Source: Candidatus Kryptoniota bacterium (GTDB lineage: Bacteria; Bacteroidota; Ignavibacteria; Kryptoniales; JAKASW01). From it: a stretch of 64,000 bases of DNA. The position numbers were made by a program, and so were the translations under genes. Below the pieces are notes generated by a model. The model did no database searches. It was not told the origin of the DNA and worked only from the letters and a program-made list of their open reading frames with translations. The stretch spans positions 1 to 64,000 of the forward strand of contig JAHECO010000012.1 in NCBI GenBank assembly GCA_024641705.1, written 5' to 3'. Shown here piece by piece: positions 3,015-11,774 of the stretch (positions are counted from its first letter, which is position 1; every line of letters begins with the position of its first letter).

Positions 3015-3650
3015 ATGAAAGCGGGACGGTCTGCATTTATTCTTGCTCTTCTTCTGTCGTGCTCGGCCGCGCAGGCCCAGCAGTTCGGGGCGTTCACATC
3101 CTTTCAGCATAACGAAATCACGCCGGGGCTCTACATAATATTTGCCGGTGAGAGGGTCGCGTACCAGTGGAACATGAGTATACCCATCCTTCCACACGAT
3201 CCCTACAACGGCAACAGGTCCAACGCCTCGTTCTGGTCTGTGTACATGGTCGGCATCGCGGCACTGGATTACTACGGAGGCATGGCGATCGAAAGCGACT
3301 CCTCCTTGACGGGGTTTCTCGCGCAGATATTCTTTATGATCCTTCCGGTCATATCTAACGGGCAGCTTCACCTCAATCTCCTGCCGGCAACTTCCGTCGA
3401 TATCACCGGGGCGCAGGCATCCGCCTTCATCGGATGGGACACGGCGCTGTTTGAGCTGAGAGATATACAATGGTTCAGGATCGCGCCGAAGGCCGGTGTC
3501 GCCTGTTACAAGGTTTTCGGTTCACCCGAGAGCGGTAAGACGAGGCTAAGTCTGGGGCTGCAGATCGGCGTGAAGATGAACATCGATTCCCGCGGACACG
3601 GGCGAAGCCCTGTTATCGGGTTCGTCACGTTGGAGGCAGGTATATACTGA
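3015..3650 (+). CDS. secreted protein of unknown function
   Basis: 211 residues. A clear Sec signal peptide (MKAGRSAFILALLLSCSAAQA, cleavage near residue 21) is followed by alternating hydrophobic/aromatic strands and a C-terminal aromatic residue (VTLEAGIY). That is the look of a small outer-membrane beta-barrel or a periplasmic beta protein. No catalytic motif was recognised. A weak AGG-type Shine-Dalgarno lies upstream. It stands alone between a truncated T9SS gene and the toxin-antitoxin island. Membership of a named family cannot be claimed by eye. Confidence 0.7.
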   Translation: MKAGRSAFILALLLSCSAAQAQQFGAFTSFQHNEITPGLYIIFAGERVAYQWNMSIPILPHDPYNGNRSNASFWSVYMVGIAALDYYGGMAIESDSSLTGFLAQIFFMILPVISNGQLHLNLLPATSVDITGAQASAFIGWDTALFELRDIQWFRIAPKAGVACYKVFGSPESGKTRLSLGLQIGVKMNIDSRGHGRSPVIGFVTLEAGIY

Positions 3651-3802
3651 CCTGAGACCGCTGTGGGAGCAGATGGGAAGGAATCGCGATGAGGTCGCAG
3701 TGCAGACTCAGGTGTTAGGTAGTAAGGGTTAGTCAGCTGCAGCACATATCATTAAGCTTACGGCACGGTTGTGGACTTGACTCGGGAAACTTTCCGCAGG
3801 AC

Positions 3803-3875
3803 TTGACTTCCACGGACGCACCGGTTACATTGTTCCCGATGAGGGAGCGTTGCGCTATGGTAAATTTAGGGAACA
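3803..3875 (+). promoter_or_regulatory. sigma70-like promoter and possible operator of the higBA module
   Basis: TTGACT (3803-3808), a 17-bp spacer, then TACATT (3826-3831). A 10-bp direct repeat GGACTTGACT occurs at 3773-3782 and 3799-3808. An inverted repeat, TGTTCCC (3831-3837) and GGGAACA (3869-3875), begins at the -10 element and ends before the GTG start at 3897. HigA-type antitoxins normally repress their own promoter, so the inverted repeat is a reasonable operator candidate. This is inferred from sequence only. Confidence 0.5.
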
Positions 3876-3896
3876 TTGCCCAGAAGGCCTCTATAG

Positions 3897-4175
3897 GTGA
3901 AGGTTATTGGAATAACAAAACTCGATGAGTTTGCAGATAAACATGGCGATGTGCGCGGACAATTGGCATCTTGGCTTGGAGAAGCCAAAAAGGCGGAATG
4001 GCACACGCCTGCAGAAATCAAAGCACGATACGCTTCTGCAAGCTTTCTTGCTGATTATCATGTCGTCTTCAATCTGAAAGGCAAGAAATACAGGCTTGAA
4101 GTCGTAGTGGGCTACAAGAATCAAATAATATCGATAAGCAGAATCGGCACACACGCCGAGTATTCAAAGTGGTGA
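3897..4175 (+). CDS. higB: HigB-family mRNA interferase toxin
   Basis: 92 residues, usual for the HigB_toxin family (RelE-like fold, ribosome-dependent mRNA cleavage). Diagnostic features are the N-terminal KVIGITKLDEF, the centre LASWLGEAKKAEWHTPAEIKARYASASFL, and the C-terminal FNLKGKKYRLEVVVGYKNQIISISRIGTHAEY, where the basic residues and the terminal TH..Y form the active face in relatives. Start is GTG with AGAAGG about nine bases upstream. It sits ten bases before an antitoxin gene and is driven by a candidate autoregulated promoter. It is intact, so a functional toxin is likely. Confidence 0.85.
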   Translation: MKVIGITKLDEFADKHGDVRGQLASWLGEAKKAEWHTPAEIKARYASASFLADYHVVFNLKGKKYRLEVVVGYKNQIISISRIGTHAEYSKW

Positions 4176-4185
4176 ATCAGATAAA

Positions 4186-5400
4186 ATGACAGATTCTGTG
4201 AAAATGATAAAAACACGATCAGACTTGGAAAAAGCTCTTTCTGAGGTCGAAAAACTTCTGGCTCTTGACCCGGATCCAGATTCCAAAGAGGGTGAAACAC
4301 TGAAAATGCTTACTCTTCTTGTGGAGGATTACGAGAAAAGTGTTTTGTGGAAGTTTCGGCCCGATCCGATTGATGCGATAGTGTTTAGAATGGAACAGCA
4401 GAATCTTTCGCAGAGAGACCTGATTCCTTTTATCGGCAGTAGAAGCAAGGTCTCAGAAGTCCTCTCTAGGAAACGTCCCTTGACCCTATCCATGATTCGG
4501 GCTCTTCACAATGGACTTGGCATACCGGCGGAATCCCTAATCCAGGATCAGGATGATACGAAATCAAGCGACTTTAAGATCGAATGGCAGAGGTTTCCGG
4601 TAAAAGATATGGCCTCGCGTGGCTGGTTGAAGCCGTTTTCCCGTGCAACAAAAGACGACATAGAGGCGGTAAAGAAGTTTTTTGATGAATTGAAGCCAAT
4701 TCCGTTGGTTCAGGTGCTATACAGAACTTCGAATCACATGCGTTCGGCTCGGAAGATGGACCAGTATGCGCTGGCTGCTTGGACAGCAAGGGTGATAAAT
4801 GTTGCTTCTGCAAACCCGCCCAAAGCACCCTATGAAAAGGAAAGCATAGACGATGACTTCATGAAGGCGCTCGTCCGCCTGAGTGTTTTTAACGATGGCC
4901 CACTCCTCGCTTGTCGCTATCTAGAAGAACAAGGGATCTCCATAGTGATTGAAAAACATCTTCCTGGCACTTACCTAGACGGGTCCGCAATCATGATAAA
5001 GCAAGAGCATCCTATCATTGCACTCACCTTGCGGCACGATCGATTGGATAATTTTTGGTTCAGCCTGATGCACGAACTTGCGCATCTGCGCCTTCATTTG
5101 GGATCGGAGATTGATCAGTTTTATGATGATTTCGATGTTGATTATCAAGGTGATTTGCGGGAGGATGCAGCCGATGCACTGGCCAGCGAAATTCTCATCC
5201 CAAAAGATGTTTGGAAAAAGAGTCCCGCGAGCAAACTGAAAATGCCAGAGGCGGTTTCAAGCCTTGCGAAGACCCTAGGTATCCATCCTGCAATCGTGGC
5301 CGGAAGAATTAGACACGAGACCGGAGATTTTCGTATCTTGAATAATCTCGTGGGCCACAGGCAGGTAAGAACCCTCTTTGGGGAGCACGGTTGGAACTAA
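4186..5400 (+). CDS. HigA-type antitoxin fused to ImmA/IrrE-family metallopeptidase
   Basis: 404 residues. Residues 1-50 are the HigA-like N-terminus. Residues ~62-115 form an XRE helix-turn-helix (MEQQNLSQRDLIPFIGSRSKVSEVLSRKR), as in HigA partners of HigB. The C-terminal half (~200-395) is an IrrE/ImmA zinc peptidase: HELAH at 296-300 and the downstream acidic helix REDAADALASE (E326), which supplies the third zinc ligand in this family. ImmA/IrrE enzymes cleave repressors in response to stress or DNA damage. The fusion suggests an antitoxin that can cleave itself or a partner and release HigB. The next gene overlaps its stop by ten bases, implying one operon. Confidence 0.85.
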   Translation: MTDSVKMIKTRSDLEKALSEVEKLLALDPDPDSKEGETLKMLTLLVEDYEKSVLWKFRPDPIDAIVFRMEQQNLSQRDLIPFIGSRSKVSEVLSRKRPLTLSMIRALHNGLGIPAESLIQDQDDTKSSDFKIEWQRFPVKDMASRGWLKPFSRATKDDIEAVKKFFDELKPIPLVQVLYRTSNHMRSARKMDQYALAAWTARVINVASANPPKAPYEKESIDDDFMKALVRLSVFNDGPLLACRYLEEQGISIVIEKHLPGTYLDGSAIMIKQEHPIIALTLRHDRLDNFWFSLMHELAHLRLHLGSEIDQFYDDFDVDYQGDLREDAADALASEILIPKDVWKKSPASKLKMPEAVSSLAKTLGIHPAIVAGRIRHETGDFRILNNLVGHRQVRTLFGEHGWN

Positions 5401-6557
5401 GCTTTGGGCCAAATCATTATATGCCGGTGCTTCATTGGAAACCAGCGGAGGTGGGAGCACTATCCAAGCTTGCAGATACGACAAGAGAACACATAACACC
5501 GCTGCTTGAATTGTGTCCAACGATGTTCGTCCAGAAAGAGGGGATTAAACGAAAGAAGCGTGGCCCCAAAAAAGTCGAAGATATTCTCCTTTCCAGAATT
5601 GAAGAGCTGAGGCTCGCTGTCACGGGAAATCCATTCTTAATTGACCTTAGACACCTGCCGGAATCCCTAACCTGCTCAGATGGTGAACATATGTGGGATG
5701 CCCTTAGCAGAAAAGGAATCTCTCTTGGCTTAGTGGCCGTCCCCGTTACGGGTTTCTTTGGAAAAGGGAAACCCCATCAGGCAAAAATTGCGGAAATAGC
5801 CGAGAACTTCGGGAGAGGACTCGCGATCCGACTTTTCAGAAGAGATCTTGAAAGGCCGAGTCTACCCAGAGATGTTCTAACTTTGCTCGAAATCTTAAAG
5901 ACCGACATTGGACGCGCCCATCTGCTGATTGACCTCGAATTAGTCAGCGCCGACTCTCATTCGTTGGATTCTTTGATAACGAGAATTCCTCAAGTAAATG
6001 ACTGGAGAAGTGTGACGATCGTAGGGGGTTCATTTCCCCTCGATCTCCGACACCTGAAGGCAAACGACGTCTATGAACTTGACAGACATGAGTTCAAACT
6101 GTGGAACGATCATCTCTGCTCGCTGATGCAGTCTCGATACGGCAGAACACCTTCTTTTGGCGATTACACGATTCAGCATCCTTTCTACAACGAACCAGTC
6201 AAAACTCCGCATGTGAGTGCAAGCATCCGTTACTCTACGCCTGAATCTTGGACTGTCTTTCGCGGGGAGTGGATTGGAAAGAAAAGCGGTGCGGGTTGTG
6301 GCCAGTACCCGGCCGAGGCACAACTCCTTATGAAAAGACCCGAGTACGCCGGGGAAGATTTCAGCTTCGGAGATAAGTTTATAGCGGAAAAGGCCCGGAA
6401 CGGATCAGATCATCCTGGAGGTCCAGCTCAATGGTTGCTTGCCGGTATTAACCACCATATTACGATTACAGCGGAAACGATTAGAGCCATCTATGAACCA
6501 GCAGCGACAACCGAGGTTACTATTCCGGTTGCCTCAGCGGTTGCGAAGTCATCTTAG
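5391..6557 (+). CDS. Beta-family protein (phage Beta-protein-like), third gene of the higBA-IrrE operon
   Basis: 388 residues. The N-terminus NHYMPVLHWKPAEVGALSKL with RITPLLEL-like TPLLELCP matches the Beta protein family (PF14350), whose biochemical function is unknown. A central IDLRHLP, a VTIVGGSFPLDL segment and a C-terminal YCxxP-like stretch (GCGQYPAEAQLL) fit the family's TIM-barrel-like pattern. Start is TTG 5391, overlapping the previous stop. ATG 5421 is possible but would remove the conserved NHY lead-in. Beta-family genes are recurrently found beside ImmA/IrrE proteins in mobile islands, so a role in the same stress or anti-phage module is inferred. Confidence 0.75.
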   Translation: MELSFGPNHYMPVLHWKPAEVGALSKLADTTREHITPLLELCPTMFVQKEGIKRKKRGPKKVEDILLSRIEELRLAVTGNPFLIDLRHLPESLTCSDGEHMWDALSRKGISLGLVAVPVTGFFGKGKPHQAKIAEIAENFGRGLAIRLFRRDLERPSLPRDVLTLLEILKTDIGRAHLLIDLELVSADSHSLDSLITRIPQVNDWRSVTIVGGSFPLDLRHLKANDVYELDRHEFKLWNDHLCSLMQSRYGRTPSFGDYTIQHPFYNEPVKTPHVSASIRYSTPESWTVFRGEWIGKKSGAGCGQYPAEAQLLMKRPEYAGEDFSFGDKFIAEKARNGSDHPGGPAQWLLAGINHHITITAETIRAIYEPAATTEVTIPVASAVAKSS

Positions 6558-6754
6558 CTGGGCAGAAGCAGCGCTGCATTGCCGGCGCAGGCTGGCCCAA
6601 AGAGAACGTGATTCTTGAGGCACCTCATTCATCTCCTGACATTTGACAGCATGTATCTCCTCAGTGTCCACGAACCCGGAGAGATAGCCCCCCTTAGACT
6701 TCAACGCTCCCTTACTGACTTCAACCGTCGAACCGTTTCAGGAAGGATCCTGTC

Positions 6755-9010
6755 ATGAAAGCATTCCAGATCATCCTCGCTCTTCTGTTTGTGCTTCCGG
6801 TCTTGTTGTTCGCTCAGGAGCAGGAGACGAGTTATGCGATATCGATAATCGCCGGGGAAAGCCGGGTGATTCTGACTCGTGACAACACGCCCATCATGGA
6901 AGTTGACAGCATTCAATTCAACTTCATAACCCCGTCACAGATGAAGGTGAAGCGGCAGAGCGCGGAGAGCACAGTGCTGGAGTTTTTTTACAGTAACGTG
7001 CCGGACCCGGGGAAGGTGAATACCGCGAATGATTACACGGTGGACATAAACATCGACAGGATAGAAGACGGCTGGCACATCCATGCTCACCCGGAGTGGG
7101 GACGCGACGTGTCGATTTATCTCAAAGATCTTCACGGACATTATTTCGGAATACGAGAGAACCTTGTCCCCGACAACAGCAAGAGTCCGGATATTACCGG
7201 TTCGGTCCAGAATTTCGTCGTGAAGGGTGAAGACACCAGGTACCACGAGAATTATGCCTCAGTATGGTCGGCGTTTTTCTTCAACAGCCTCGGCTACGCC
7301 TCTTTCTTCGATACGTTCGCGGAAGGTCAGTATCAATTCGCGATAAACGGGAAGACGGAAATCTATCACAGGACGGGAGATCTCGACTGGTATATCTTCA
7401 CCGGGGACAGCGGTGACGAGATAATGAAATCATATTACAACGTCATCGGTGCGCCGAAGCACATCCCCGCGTGGGCTTCCGGCGTGACAATATGGCGGGA
7501 CGAGGATAAGAACGGCAAAGCGGACATACTCGACGACGTGGAACAGATGACCGCACTCAAGATTCCGATCACCTCGATTATGGTTGACAGGCCCTACAGC
7601 AACGGCGTAAACGGGTGGTCGAAAATGGATTTCAATGAGAAGTTCAGGAACCCGAGGGCTTGGATATACACGCTCAATGCCGACTACAACCTCCGGTTCA
7701 TGTCGTGGGTGGCACCGTGCACGTTCGGAGATACGAGCATCGTTCACGGGATGCCCGGCGACCACGGATATATCGACCTCAGCGATCCGGAGAGCGTGTC
7801 GGAGTTCGATAATGCGTTGACGAAGAATCTTTATGCTTACGGTGTTCAGGGGCACAAGATGGATCGTGCCGACGAGGTGTTTCCTGTCGAGCAGACCTGG
7901 CACGACAGGACCCCGCCGTGGGAGCGGAGGAACAAATACATTTACCTTTACGCGAAAGTCATAGATTCCGTGCTTGCCGCGAAATGGGGGAAAGATAATT
8001 TCAACTACTCCCGGGGCGGAATGCAGGGGAGCCAGAAGTACCTGAGCGCTTTGTGGGGCGGGGACTCGCGGGCGAGCTGGGACGGGCTTGCGTGTAGTGT
8101 CGCGAACGCCATGCGGGTCGGATTTATTGGTTTCCCGGATTGGGGAAGCGACGTCGGCGGGTACCTGGGCGATGTCGGGATGGAGCCGGAGGAGCTTTTC
8201 AGCAGGTGGCTGCAGTTCGGGACGTGGTCTGGATTGTTCGAAATCAAACTCGACGGCGCGGGCGGAAGCGGTAATGACAGAGCTCCCTGGCATTACGGCG
8301 AGACGCTCCAGGACAACTTCAGGCGTGCATGCGTGGAGAGGATGGAGCTCGCGCCCTACGTCTACTCGCAGCTGAACACGTCTGCCGACAACGGCGTGCT
8401 CATGAAACCACCGGCTTACGTCTACCCGCATGATCCCGCGACATATGATGTCTGGAACGAATATTTGTTCGGCAATTCATTCCTCGTCGCGCCGGTGACG
8501 CAACCCGACCAGTCGATGCGGAATATTTATCTCCCCGAAGGAACATGGTACGATTGGTATTCGCCGGGAAGATCCTACGCCGGGGGAAAGACTTACACAT
8601 GCGTGCTTTCCGCGACGCATATCCCCGTCTTCGTGGAACAGAACGCCATATTCGTGACCGGAGATAACTGGCTTACGGGCAACTCGGTGAAATGGAACGG
8701 CGACGCGAAGCCGGAGTTGATAGTGAACGCTTTCCCCGGCGACAGCGACTTTACGAACAGGTTCACATATGTCGACAGATTTGCCGGGGACAGTCTGAAG
8801 GTGATAACGATATCACAGAAGGGGAGCGGGATCGCGATTCAAGTTCCCGCTATTGGGTGCGAAGCGAAGGTGGTCGTCTACAACGTGGTCCCGAAGGGAC
8901 AGGTGATGGTGAACGGCAAGGCGGTGGACGCCAGGATTGACGAAGAAAGGAAGACAGTGGAGGTTGAGATCGGCAGGGGACTGGAGTACCGGATTGTGGT
9001 TGGAAGATGA
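6755..9010 (+). CDS. secreted glycoside hydrolase family 31 (alpha-glucosidase/alpha-xylosidase type)
   Basis: 751 residues with a Sec signal peptide (LALLFVLPVLLFAQ). The N-terminal beta-sandwich (~25-230) is followed by a GH31 (beta/alpha)8 barrel. The nucleophile region is HKMDRADE (D370). The acid/base region is LWGGDSRASWDGL (D437), followed by GFPDWGSDVGGYLG. A distal beta domain includes LPEGTWYDWYSPG, typical of GH31. It retains alpha-linked sugars from exo positions; the exact substrate cannot be read from sequence. There is no T9SS domain, so it is probably periplasmic. It lies between two conflict modules without an obvious operon partner. Confidence 0.9.
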   Translation: MKAFQIILALLFVLPVLLFAQEQETSYAISIIAGESRVILTRDNTPIMEVDSIQFNFITPSQMKVKRQSAESTVLEFFYSNVPDPGKVNTANDYTVDINIDRIEDGWHIHAHPEWGRDVSIYLKDLHGHYFGIRENLVPDNSKSPDITGSVQNFVVKGEDTRYHENYASVWSAFFFNSLGYASFFDTFAEGQYQFAINGKTEIYHRTGDLDWYIFTGDSGDEIMKSYYNVIGAPKHIPAWASGVTIWRDEDKNGKADILDDVEQMTALKIPITSIMVDRPYSNGVNGWSKMDFNEKFRNPRAWIYTLNADYNLRFMSWVAPCTFGDTSIVHGMPGDHGYIDLSDPESVSEFDNALTKNLYAYGVQGHKMDRADEVFPVEQTWHDRTPPWERRNKYIYLYAKVIDSVLAAKWGKDNFNYSRGGMQGSQKYLSALWGGDSRASWDGLACSVANAMRVGFIGFPDWGSDVGGYLGDVGMEPEELFSRWLQFGTWSGLFEIKLDGAGGSGNDRAPWHYGETLQDNFRRACVERMELAPYVYSQLNTSADNGVLMKPPAYVYPHDPATYDVWNEYLFGNSFLVAPVTQPDQSMRNIYLPEGTWYDWYSPGRSYAGGKTYTCVLSATHIPVFVEQNAIFVTGDNWLTGNSVKWNGDAKPELIVNAFPGDSDFTNRFTYVDRFAGDSLKVITISQKGSGIAIQVPAIGCEAKVVVYNVVPKGQVMVNGKAVDARIDEERKTVEVEIGRGLEYRIVVGR

Positions 9011-9348: not shown

Positions 9349-10239
9349 ATGCCGATAAGAATCCCAGAGAACCTAAAGCCGATTCTGAACGTTGAAGAGG
9401 AGAATGACAGCGTGTTGCAGGCCCTCGCGTTGAGAAAAAATGCAGTTCTACTGGCGCTGATTGCTCCCTATGTGCCCGAGCGTATATCTCCAACCGAGTA
9501 TGCTTCGGCATCGCTCGGTGTCTCCGAGGAGTTTGGAATTGAGACGGTAATATCTCACATACGGCAGCACACGAAATGCAAGAACCTGTATTTGGTTATA
9601 CACAGTCCGGGTGGACTTGTCCATTCTTCTTATAAGATTGCTAAGGCGCTTAGGTCTAACTTTAAGGAAATTACCGTATTCGTGCCCTATTTGGCCGCTA
9701 GCGGAGGGACGCTAATAGCACTGACCGGGAATCACATTGTTATGGGTTTGATGAGTTATCTTACCCCAATTGATCCACTTTACGGATCAATACCGCTGAA
9801 TTCGCTTCCAAGGGCATTCACCAGATTGGTGAATTATTTTGAAAAGAGGGAGAAGGACGAGGCATCATATCCGTGGATCGCTTTGACCGAGAAGATCGAT
9901 CCAATACAGCTTGAAACCTATAGTGGCGAGATTGATGCGGTCCAACGATACGCTTGTGAGATCTTGAGCCTAAGTCACCCGAGTCTATCGAAGCAAGAGG
10001 TCGAGAAGATAGCGAAGGCTCTTATATTAGAATTTGAGTCGCATTCCACCCTTATTGGGTTCAAGGATGCATCGCGGATAAACCTACCTGTGACGAACAA
10101 CGTTAGTCACCACAATGAGTGGAGAATATTGAGGGAGTGGCTAGGAAGGTACCTGTTGAAAAGTGAAAGCCAGCATTTTATCCGTTGCGTTATACCGGGT
10201 AGAAAGGCAACAAGGAACTCGAAGGGGAGCAAGAAATGA
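9349..10239 (+). CDS. SDH-family Clp-fold serine protease (SppA-like)
   Basis: 296 residues of the serine dehydrogenase proteinase family (PF01972), which has a ClpP/crotonase-like fold. The oxyanion turn is LYLVIHSPGGLVHSS (~80-93). The nucleophile elbow is FVPYLAASGGTLIALT (Ser118). The segment MSYLTPIDPLYGS contains the conserved acidic residue after it. There is no signal peptide or TM helix in this copy, so it is probably cytosolic or peripheral to the membrane. It is the first gene of a four-gene cluster, and its stop overlaps the next start as ATGA. Likely substrates are membrane or misfolded proteins, but the in vivo target is unknown. Confidence 0.85.
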   Translation: MPIRIPENLKPILNVEEENDSVLQALALRKNAVLLALIAPYVPERISPTEYASASLGVSEEFGIETVISHIRQHTKCKNLYLVIHSPGGLVHSSYKIAKALRSNFKEITVFVPYLAASGGTLIALTGNHIVMGLMSYLTPIDPLYGSIPLNSLPRAFTRLVNYFEKREKDEASYPWIALTEKIDPIQLETYSGEIDAVQRYACEILSLSHPSLSKQEVEKIAKALILEFESHSTLIGFKDASRINLPVTNNVSHHNEWRILREWLGRYLLKSESQHFIRCVIPGRKATRNSKGSKK

Positions 10240-10457
10240 AGAGAAGCAATCTCTTGAAAGATCGACGAATAGGAGACGCAATCGCATTCCAGAACGCATT
10301 TGAAACCTGGAGGAGCTTGGACTCCCGCGAAGCGTTTAAACTGTGGAGATCACTTGCCAATCGGAAGAGCAAGACTACCGTCGATAAGAGTTCAAAGGGA
10401 ACAAAGAGGCGTCGCGTTTCTCGCCCGGCCTCGAACGGATTTGGCAGCGAACGATAA
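10236..10457 (+). CDS. small basic protein coupled to the SDH protease
   Basis: 73 residues, strongly basic. The first half contains two related stretches (AFETWRSLD and AFKLWRSLA), a short tandem repeat of a W-containing helix. The tail is Ser/Arg/Lys-rich and probably disordered. The ATG overlaps the upstream TGA by four bases, the usual sign of translational coupling. No family recognised. It could be a protease adaptor or nucleic-acid-binding accessory, but that is a guess. Confidence 0.5.
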   Translation: MKRSNLLKDRRIGDAIAFQNAFETWRSLDSREAFKLWRSLANRKSKTTVDKSSKGTKRRRVSRPASNGFGSER

Positions 10458-10621
10458 TGTTTTGACTGGTTGGAGCGGTTGGGGAGCGGGGGGACGAGTG
10501 CCCCTTTTCACGAACTCACGAGCAGAATACCTGCGTTGGCCGGTGGGGAGTGGTATTTTGAATTGGTTTTCCGATTGGCGATATCTGATCTTATTTTGAA
10601 GGCCGCAATTAAGGGATTCTC

Positions 10622-11503
10622 TTGCATAAGGTTGTCTTAGAAGCGTTTGAGTCTACAAACTCGAAACGCTTCTGGTTGTTCTTACTTTCCGGGTGGGGAT
10701 CTATTGTAGCCATCCTTCTGTTTGGCAAGAACTTCGTTGGTCTCAATGTGGTTGCCTCGTGTATCTTGGGTCTCCTAATCGTCGTGGCTATATGGCTCGG
10801 TAGATTTCTATTCTTTCTCTTGAAGTACTCTTTGAAGTACTTGAACTCTAGGTACAGAGAAATAGCCTATGCCGAATCGATATTGATCCTGAAAGACGCC
10901 TTTGCTAAGGTGCATTGGCTGCGGAAGAACAGTAGCGTTACAGATAAAGATTTCAAAGAAGCCATGTTGTATCTCTGTGATCGGCTAAAAGAGATATTTG
11001 CGCGACTAACGCGTTCAACTTGCTCGGTTTCAATAAAGGTCGCGGTGAAGGGAACCGTCACGGCTATTGCAGAAGTTGCTAACCTCTCGAGAGACCAAGA
11101 ATCACGCGCTAGAGACACCCACGCCTACAAGAGCGTTCAGCATTTGATTTTCAAAAACACATGCTTTCTTCAGATTTTCACTAATTTTACAGACGGCAAG
11201 AAAGACAAATTATTCTATGTCAATAATGATATTCCAGCAGACAGAAGTTACCAGAACACGAGTCGGGAAGCATATTCAGACGGGAAGCTCCCCTATGATA
11301 GTGAAATTGTCGTGCCGTTGATTCCATTGATTAGAGACGAGGAAAACAATTATAATCTTTTGGGGTTTCTCTGTGTTGACTGTAAGGACAGAAATAAGTT
11401 TGATGGGAAGTATCATGTTGGCCTGCTCCAAGGTGTTGCAGACGGAATTTATGATCTGATGCTCCAGCGAATTGAAGCAAAAGGACGCCAGTCAAATTCT
11501 TAG
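10622..11503 (+). CDS. two-TM membrane protein with C-terminal GAF-like sensor domain
   Basis: 293 residues. Two TM helices (~18-36 and ~41-68) form a hairpin. A helical linker (~72-125) follows, then a domain with the GAF pattern: paired strands TCSVSIKVAVKG, the late strand YDSEIVVPLIPL, LLGFLCVD and a terminal helix HVGLLQGVADGIYDLM. GAF domains bind small molecules such as cyclic nucleotides or act as redox sensors. Start is TTG with AAGGG six bases upstream; no in-frame ATG is near. It lies in the SDH-protease cluster after a 164-bp gap, so it is plausibly the sensor or membrane anchor of that module. Confidence 0.65.
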   Translation: MHKVVLEAFESTNSKRFWLFLLSGWGSIVAILLFGKNFVGLNVVASCILGLLIVVAIWLGRFLFFLLKYSLKYLNSRYREIAYAESILILKDAFAKVHWLRKNSSVTDKDFKEAMLYLCDRLKEIFARLTRSTCSVSIKVAVKGTVTAIAEVANLSRDQESRARDTHAYKSVQHLIFKNTCFLQIFTNFTDGKKDKLFYVNNDIPADRSYQNTSREAYSDGKLPYDSEIVVPLIPLIRDEENNYNLLGFLCVDCKDRNKFDGKYHVGLLQGVADGIYDLMLQRIEAKGRQSNS

Positions 11504-11513
11504 GAGGTTTAGG

Positions 11514-11774
11514 ATGGCAATCGAACAGAAAAAAGAGGATGCGTTACTAGATACCCTTCCGTTCACGGTTGAGGAAGAAACGGATCACATAAAATTGGTT
11601 TCTAAGAAATCTGTGAGTACCGGTACAAGTGGTCCACGTTCATCGACGTCCAAAGGAGTCACCGTAGAGGTTCATCTGTTTGACAGGGGAGACCTGGACA
11701 GATTAAACGCCATTAATGTGGATCCGCCCAAGAAGGTGCGGTTGCTTGACAGAATCATAAGGCGCATCAAATAG
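11514..11774 (+). CDS. small protein of unknown function, last gene of the SDH/GAF cluster
   Basis: 86 residues. ATG 11514 is set by a strong AGGAGG at 11502-11507 with a six-base gap; a longer reading from 11472 has no such site. An acidic/basic N-terminus is followed by a Ser/Thr/Gly-rich middle, a strand GVTVEVHLFDRGDLDRLNAI and a basic end (LLDRIIRRIK). The ribosome site overlaps the stop of the GAF gene, so the two are co-translated. No known family recognised. Confidence 0.6.
   Translation: MAIEQKKEDALLDTLPFTVEEETDHIKLVSKKSVSTGTSGPRSSTSKGVTVEVHLFDRGDLDRLNAINVDPPKKVRLLDRIIRRIK

What the first reader, a model, noticed from the sequence alone, without database searches (positions are those of the whole stretch)
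3897..6557. HigB toxin + HigA fused to IrrE peptidase + Beta-family protein operon
A canonical HigB is followed by an antitoxin that carries its own zinc peptidase (HELAH 296-300, E326), and a Beta-family protein overlaps its stop. The fusion offers a direct way to release the toxin by self-cleavage. The Beta protein's role is unknown, and this order suggests a three-part regulated toxin module.
Basis: partly seen in the sequence, partly recalled or inferred. Interest (0 to 1): 0.62.

Follow-up and report, generated by a model that had tools for sequence, protein, structure and literature searches.

The report
Horizontally acquired PD-λ-2-type phage-defence operon
The three genes form a phage-defence operon of an already described type (PD-λ-2, tested in E. 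coli in 2022); what stands out is that this copy keeps the intact HigB toxin residues that every E. coli-type relative examined has lost, so which protein is the toxin here cannot simply be carried over from the E. coli experiment.

Summary
Three same-strand genes encode a HigB-family protein (A, 3897-4175), a HigA domain fused to a zinc peptidase (B, 4186-5400; HELAH 296-300, E326) and a Beta-family protein (C, 5391-6557) that overlaps B's stop. This is the PD-λ-2 architecture: PADLOC E-values 1e-37, 3e-152 and 1e-44. Vassallo et al. 2022 showed that the E. coli operon defends by abortive infection; there B alone is toxic, A rescues, and C is needed for defence. That reversal may not transfer. 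R66, H86 and Y89, invariant in the HigB family, are kept in the window, in 72/80 two-gene relatives, 13/13 of its own clade and 9/9 ordinary HigBs, but in 0/6 E. coli-type A proteins. The window's B lies in a clade separate from E. coli's, where Beta is usually followed by a convergent P4-CII/sce7726-family gene, which the window lacks. The operon is inserted between genes that lie 98 bp apart in a congener and has lower GC than its flank.

The parts
3897..4175 (+). A: HigB-family protein (92 aa, GTG start); presumed active-site residues R66 (4092-4094), H86 (4152-4154), Y89 (4161-4163) intact
   Evidence: PF09907 E=4e-23; PADLOC PD-Lambda-2_A E=1e-37; profile match to solved E. coli HigB E about 1e-11; residue conservation
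4186..5400 (+). B: HigA-type antitoxin/repressor domain fused to an M78 (ImmA/IrrE) zinc peptidase (404 aa)
   Evidence: PADLOC PD-Lambda-2_B E=3e-152; HigA match residues 7-118 E=1e-15; PF06114
4186..4557 (+). HigA domain of B (about residues 1-124)
   Evidence: phrog_11202 match residues 4-124; solved HigA 5YCL/5IFG; stand-alone homologues in congeners
5071..5085 (+). HELAH zinc motif, residues 296-300 (third ligand E326 at 5161-5163)
   Evidence: invariant in 65 homologues
5391..6557 (+). C: Beta-family protein (388 aa, TTG start, overlaps the end of B by 10 nt)
   Evidence: PF14350 E=2e-56; PADLOC PD-Lambda-2_C E=1e-44; only PF14350 member of the genome
3803..3878 (+). Weak candidate promoter (TTGACT-17-TACATT, 3803-3831) with an inverted repeat CATTGTTCCC/GGGAACATTG (3828-3837, 3869-3878); not significant
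   Evidence: 18 of 200 shuffles contain such a repeat
3651..6754 (.). Inserted segment between two conserved neighbours (gene 3015-3650 and glycoside-hydrolase-like gene 6755-9010); empty site in congener G377
   Evidence: GC mostly 44-49% against about 55% on the left

Best explanation
This is a horizontally acquired phage-defence operon of the PD-lambda-2 kind, from a sister lineage of the one tested in E. coli. Proposed working: A is a HigB-type ribosome-dependent mRNase held inactive by the HigA domain of B, which also represses the operon. The M78 domain of B is a latent zinc peptidase. C acts as the infection sensor or licensing factor, its translation coupled to B through the 10-nt overlap. 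On infection C, directly or through a phage product, switches the peptidase on; it cuts the HigA/linker part of B (or a partner), lifting repression and freeing A, which cleaves mRNA so that the infected cell aborts phage production. Shown here: gene content and order, intact peptidase and HigB residues, HigBA kinship of A and of B's N-terminus, conserved A-B pairing, insertion at an otherwise empty site. Shown by others for an E. coli relative: abortive defence, toxicity of B, rescue by A, need for C. Inferred: that A is the effector here, the cleavage target, and C as sensor.
For: PD-lambda-2 by profile. A and the N-terminus of B match the two partners of the solved E. coli HigBA complex. 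R66/H86/Y89 of A kept in the window, 13/13 of its clade and 72/80 two-gene relatives. HExxH, H304 and E326 invariant in 65 B proteins. A directly upstream of B in 75/78 loci. M78 relatives ImmA and CapP act on HTH partners (ImmA-ImmR; weak profile match to CapP 7t5t). HigBAC, another HigB system, aborts lambda infection when a phage protein releases HigB. C needed for defence in E. coli.
Against: In E. coli PD-lambda-2 the HigA-peptidase, not the HigB-like protein, was toxic. No cleavage of B or of a repressor has been shown for this family. Beta is absent from most A-B loci (16 of 72 have it), so A-B must work without it.
Confidence: 0.5

Rival explanations
1. It works exactly as reported for E. 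coli PD-lambda-2: B (HTH-peptidase) is the toxic protein, A is only its inhibitor or stabiliser, and C is needed to unleash B during infection.
For: Direct experiment on the E. coli system; B is the best conserved component between the window and E. coli loci (40-42% identity) with the same active site.
Against: The E. coli-type A proteins have lost the HigB residues and are only 18-21% identical to the window's A, which keeps them; the window's B and C fall in another clade.
Confidence: 0.3
2. It is an addiction or stability module of a mobile insertion, or a decaying copy, with no present defence role: the fourth gene D usual in its clade is missing and the operon is confined to this genome within its genus.
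For: No D in the window; no Beta in other sampled congeners; single-copy insertion at a site empty in G377; a genome-wide D search found none (although its controls also gave none).
Against: All three ORFs and both active sites are intact; two other members of the clade also lack a detected D (L051, L053), and E. coli PD-lambda-2 defends without a D next to it.
Confidence: 0.12
3. B's peptidase acts in trans on a host or phage protein (a protease effector); the HigA domain only targets or regulates it.
For: B is toxic by itself in E. coli, which fits a protease with a host target; the M78 part also occurs fused to a different HTH beside a DUF6932 gene, so it is a portable module.
Against: Characterised M78 proteins mostly act on HTH repressors (own knowledge of IrrE and CapP); no target is known for this family.
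Confidence: 0.08

Closest known systems
PD-lambda-2 (Vassallo et al. 2022, PMC9519451; PADLOC PD-Lambda-2)
   Same: Same three families in the same order, with strong profile matches for all three proteins.
   Different: Window A keeps R66/H86/Y89, which the E. coli-type A proteins lack; B and C fall in a sister clade; function not tested.
HigBA of E. coli K-12 (YgjN/YgjM; PDB 5IFG, 5YCL)
   Same: A corresponds to HigB and B residues 7-118 to HigA.
   Different: HigA is fused to an M78 peptidase and followed by Beta.
Gop-Beta-CII of satellite P4 (PMC9122126)
   Same: Contains a Beta-family protein; relatives of the window's operon also carry the convergent CII/sce7726-family gene.
   Different: Window has no gop and no CII; P4 has no HigB or HTH-peptidase there.
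RosmerTA / ImmA-type antitoxins (PMC10440598)
   Same: HTH-ImmA-type peptidase antitoxin next to a toxin gene.
   Different: RmrA profiles match only the peptidase part and weakly (E=2e-8 against 3e-152 for PD-Lambda-2_B).
HigBAC and other toxin-antitoxin-chaperone modules
   Same: HigB-type toxin, HigA-type antitoxin, third gene, abortive defence; HigBAC is triggered by the lambda major tail protein.
   Different: Third gene is Beta, not a SecB-like chaperone; the HigA protein carries a peptidase.

Membership tests
PD-lambda-2 | HigB-like gene, HTH-M78 peptidase gene, Beta gene, in this order on one strand | tested here: met
PD-lambda-2 | Profile matches of all three components over nearly full length | tested here: met
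   PADLOC A 1e-37, B 3e-152, C 1e-44; note that A profiles also match ordinary HigB
PD-lambda-2 | Intact peptidase zinc site | tested here: met
   HELAH 296-300, E326
PD-lambda-2 | Abortive defence; B toxic, A rescues, C required | not testable with these tools
   Reported for the E. coli system; needs an experiment for this copy
HigBA (PF09907 type II toxin-antitoxin) | HigB-family toxin gene upstream of a HigA-family antitoxin gene | tested here: met
HigBA (PF09907 type II toxin-antitoxin) | HigB is an mRNase neutralised by HigA | not testable with these tools
   Conserved residues kept; reverse roles reported for E. coli PD-lambda-2
Gop-Beta-CII | gop, beta and convergent cII genes together | tested here: not met
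   Only Beta present; no CII/sce7726 match in the window; no gop at the locus
Toxin-antitoxin-chaperone (TAC) | SecB-like chaperone as third gene | tested here: not met
   Third gene is PF14350 only
RosmerTA | RmrA-type antitoxin | tested here: not met
   Best RmrA profile E=2e-8, peptidase part only, against 3e-152 for PD-Lambda-2_B

The most novel reading that the evidence does not exclude
The PD-lambda-2 family holds two mechanistic classes. In the ancestral class, to which the window belongs, A is a live HigB RNase and the effector. In the E. coli-type class A has lost its active site and become a dedicated inhibitor, leaving the HigA-peptidase itself as the toxic part, which would explain the unexpected toxicity of B. 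Beta joined the two classes separately, in the window's clade usually together with a P4-CII-like, predicted PD-(D/E)XK protein as a fourth component.
Probability: 0.4. Interest if true: 0.6.

Novelty: new member of a known kind. Interest (0 to 1): 0.42.

Why it matters
It turns a puzzling result (an 'antitoxin' that is toxic and a 'toxin' that rescues) into a testable one: most relatives, this one included, keep the HigB residues that the E. coli-type proteins have lost. It also links PD-λ-2 to the P4 Gop-Beta-CII system through the shared Beta protein and, in the window's relatives, a convergent CII-family gene. The window's operon itself is otherwise a further member of a described defence system.

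Tried and rejected
Beta fold by sequence: no solved relative. D remnant in the window: none by profile, tblastn gave only scattered weak hits and nothing D-like in the frames beside C. Operator palindrome: present, but about 9% of shuffles have one, so not claimed. Promoter and terminator scans: no better than shuffles. Literature searches by PF14350, COG2856, RosmerTA/ImmA and gop terms found no paper giving a mechanism for this operon. Considered and rejected as membership: TAC module (no SecB-like gene), Gop-Beta-CII (no gop or CII), RosmerTA (weak, peptidase-only match).

Full report
1. What is there. Three ORFs on the + strand at 3897-4175 (A, GTG), 4186-5400 (B) and 5391-6557 (C, TTG) are open and intact. 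Pfam names them HigB_toxin (E=4e-23), Peptidase_M78 (E=8e-10) and Beta_protein (E=2e-56). B's HELAH is at residues 296-300 and E326 is present. A and B are 10 nt apart; B and C overlap by 10 nt. The TTG start of C is supported because homologues begin level with C residue 4, while the next ATG would remove conserved Y10.

2. It is a known kind of system. PADLOC identifies A, B and C as PD-Lambda-2 A, B and C with E=1e-37, 3e-152 and 1e-44. Vassallo et al. 2022 (PMC9519451) describe PD-λ-2 as a HigB-like protein, a HigA-like domain plus peptidase, and a relative of a P4 antitoxin. It gave abortive defence; B alone was toxic, A rescued, and C was not needed for neutralisation but was needed for defence against λvir. 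Makarova et al. 2009 (PMC2701414) had already predicted three-component systems built on HTH-COG2856 fusions beside RelE or PIN toxins.

3. Anatomy of A and B. A profile of 36 A proteins matches solved E. coli HigB (5YCL, 5IFG, 6KML; E about 1e-11). A profile of 65 B proteins matches solved HigA over profile positions 7-118 (E=1e-15) and, weakly, CapP over the peptidase part. So A and B's N-terminus correspond to the two partners of the E. coli HigBA complex, with a peptidase added. Several genus relatives carry ordinary HigBA pairs without a peptidase. H296, E297, H300, H304 and E326 are invariant in 65 B proteins.

4. Neighbourhood statistics. The 80 best B relatives in genomes of many phyla were scanned with A, C and D profiles. 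A lies directly upstream in 75 of 78 loci with enough upstream sequence. C follows directly in 16 of 72 with enough downstream sequence. D, a P4-CII/sce7726-family gene (PADLOC cll and NCBIfam sce7726 matches), occurs in 11 of the 16 C-bearing loci, always on the opposite strand, overlapping the 3' end of C by 26-71 bp, and never in this set without C. Most D proteins carry a D-x-A...E-x-K-S motif of the PD-(D/E)XK type (reading by inference). The window has no D. In other loci (Rhizobium, Marinibacterium, an IS-split Acinetobacter copy, G301) a DUF6932-type protein and a different HTH-M78 protein stand before Beta and D. In P4 itself the order is gop, beta, convergent cII. Among 395 genomes sampled from the window's phylum only 7 have Beta; six of these have an M78 gene at the locus.

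5. Two Beta-bearing clades. In the B tree with E. coli loci added, Beta-bearing loci fall in two separate, well supported clades. Clade I (100/99) holds E. coli loci L244-L246, Marinobacter, two viral contigs and two basal loci; none has a detected D. Clade II (97/93) holds the window and 13 others, most with D. The C tree groups the clade II Beta proteins (90/91) apart from those of clade I, though some rows are long and weakly placed. This suggests, without proving, that Beta was acquired twice.

6. A's presumed active site differs between the clades. R66, H86 and Y89 (window numbering) are invariant in the 36-row A alignment and present in E. coli HigB. All three are kept in 72/80 AB-type loci, 13/13 of clade II including the window, 2/2 basal clade I loci and 9/9 ordinary HigBs, but in 0/6 E. 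coli-type A proteins, which also lack the GTHxEY end. These E. coli-type A proteins still score weakly as HigB_toxin. If the tested PD-λ-2 is of this type, its A is a HigB without its presumed active site, which would explain why it rescued rather than killed. Two DNA searches of 5,426 E. coli genomes found the operon in the same 8 genomes; the three representatives opened, one per sequence group, all carry such an A.

7. Acquisition. The flanking genes are adjacent in congener G377 (matches at 189714-190337 and 190436-192661) and nearly so in G259. The operon sits between them in the window and has mostly 44-49% GC against about 55% to the left. It holds the genome's only PF14350 and PF09907 members.

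8. Mechanism and confidence. Membership in the PD-λ-2 family is near certain by sequence. For the way this copy works I favour a live HigB effector held by the HigA domain of B and released by a C-controlled peptidase (0.5) over the published E. coli role reversal (0.3), an addictive or decaying module (0.12), and a protease effector with a separate target (0.08).

9. Verdict. Observation confirmed; interpretation partly supported; system already described. The useful addition is the split in A's presumed active site between the clades and the Beta-CII link to P4.

Noticed in passing
window 9349-11774: Second stretch of low GC (about 41-49%) with a ClpP-like SDH-type protease gene (PF01972) and two poorly matched ORFs; the protease has only a distant match in one of twelve sampled congeners.
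   Followed up: partly
L034, L041/L049, L046, L047: Related four-gene arrangement: DUF6932-type protein, a different HTH-M78 protein, Beta, convergent CII/sce7726 gene; the Acinetobacter plasmid copy is split by an insertion that carries blaNDM-1.
   Followed up: partly
L083, L092, L093, L094, L104, L107: A-B pairs without Beta followed directly by a type I restriction HsdR-like gene.
   Followed up: no
L038, L039 (G101, G105): HTH and M78 peptidase as two separate genes before Beta and a convergent CII-family gene, a CapH/CapP-like layout.
   Followed up: partly
L016:1168-1473 and PADLOC PDLC03979/PDLC03981: The PADLOC PD-Lambda-2_A profiles also score ordinary HigB proteins highly (132 bits), so A alone is not diagnostic of the system.
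   Followed up: yes
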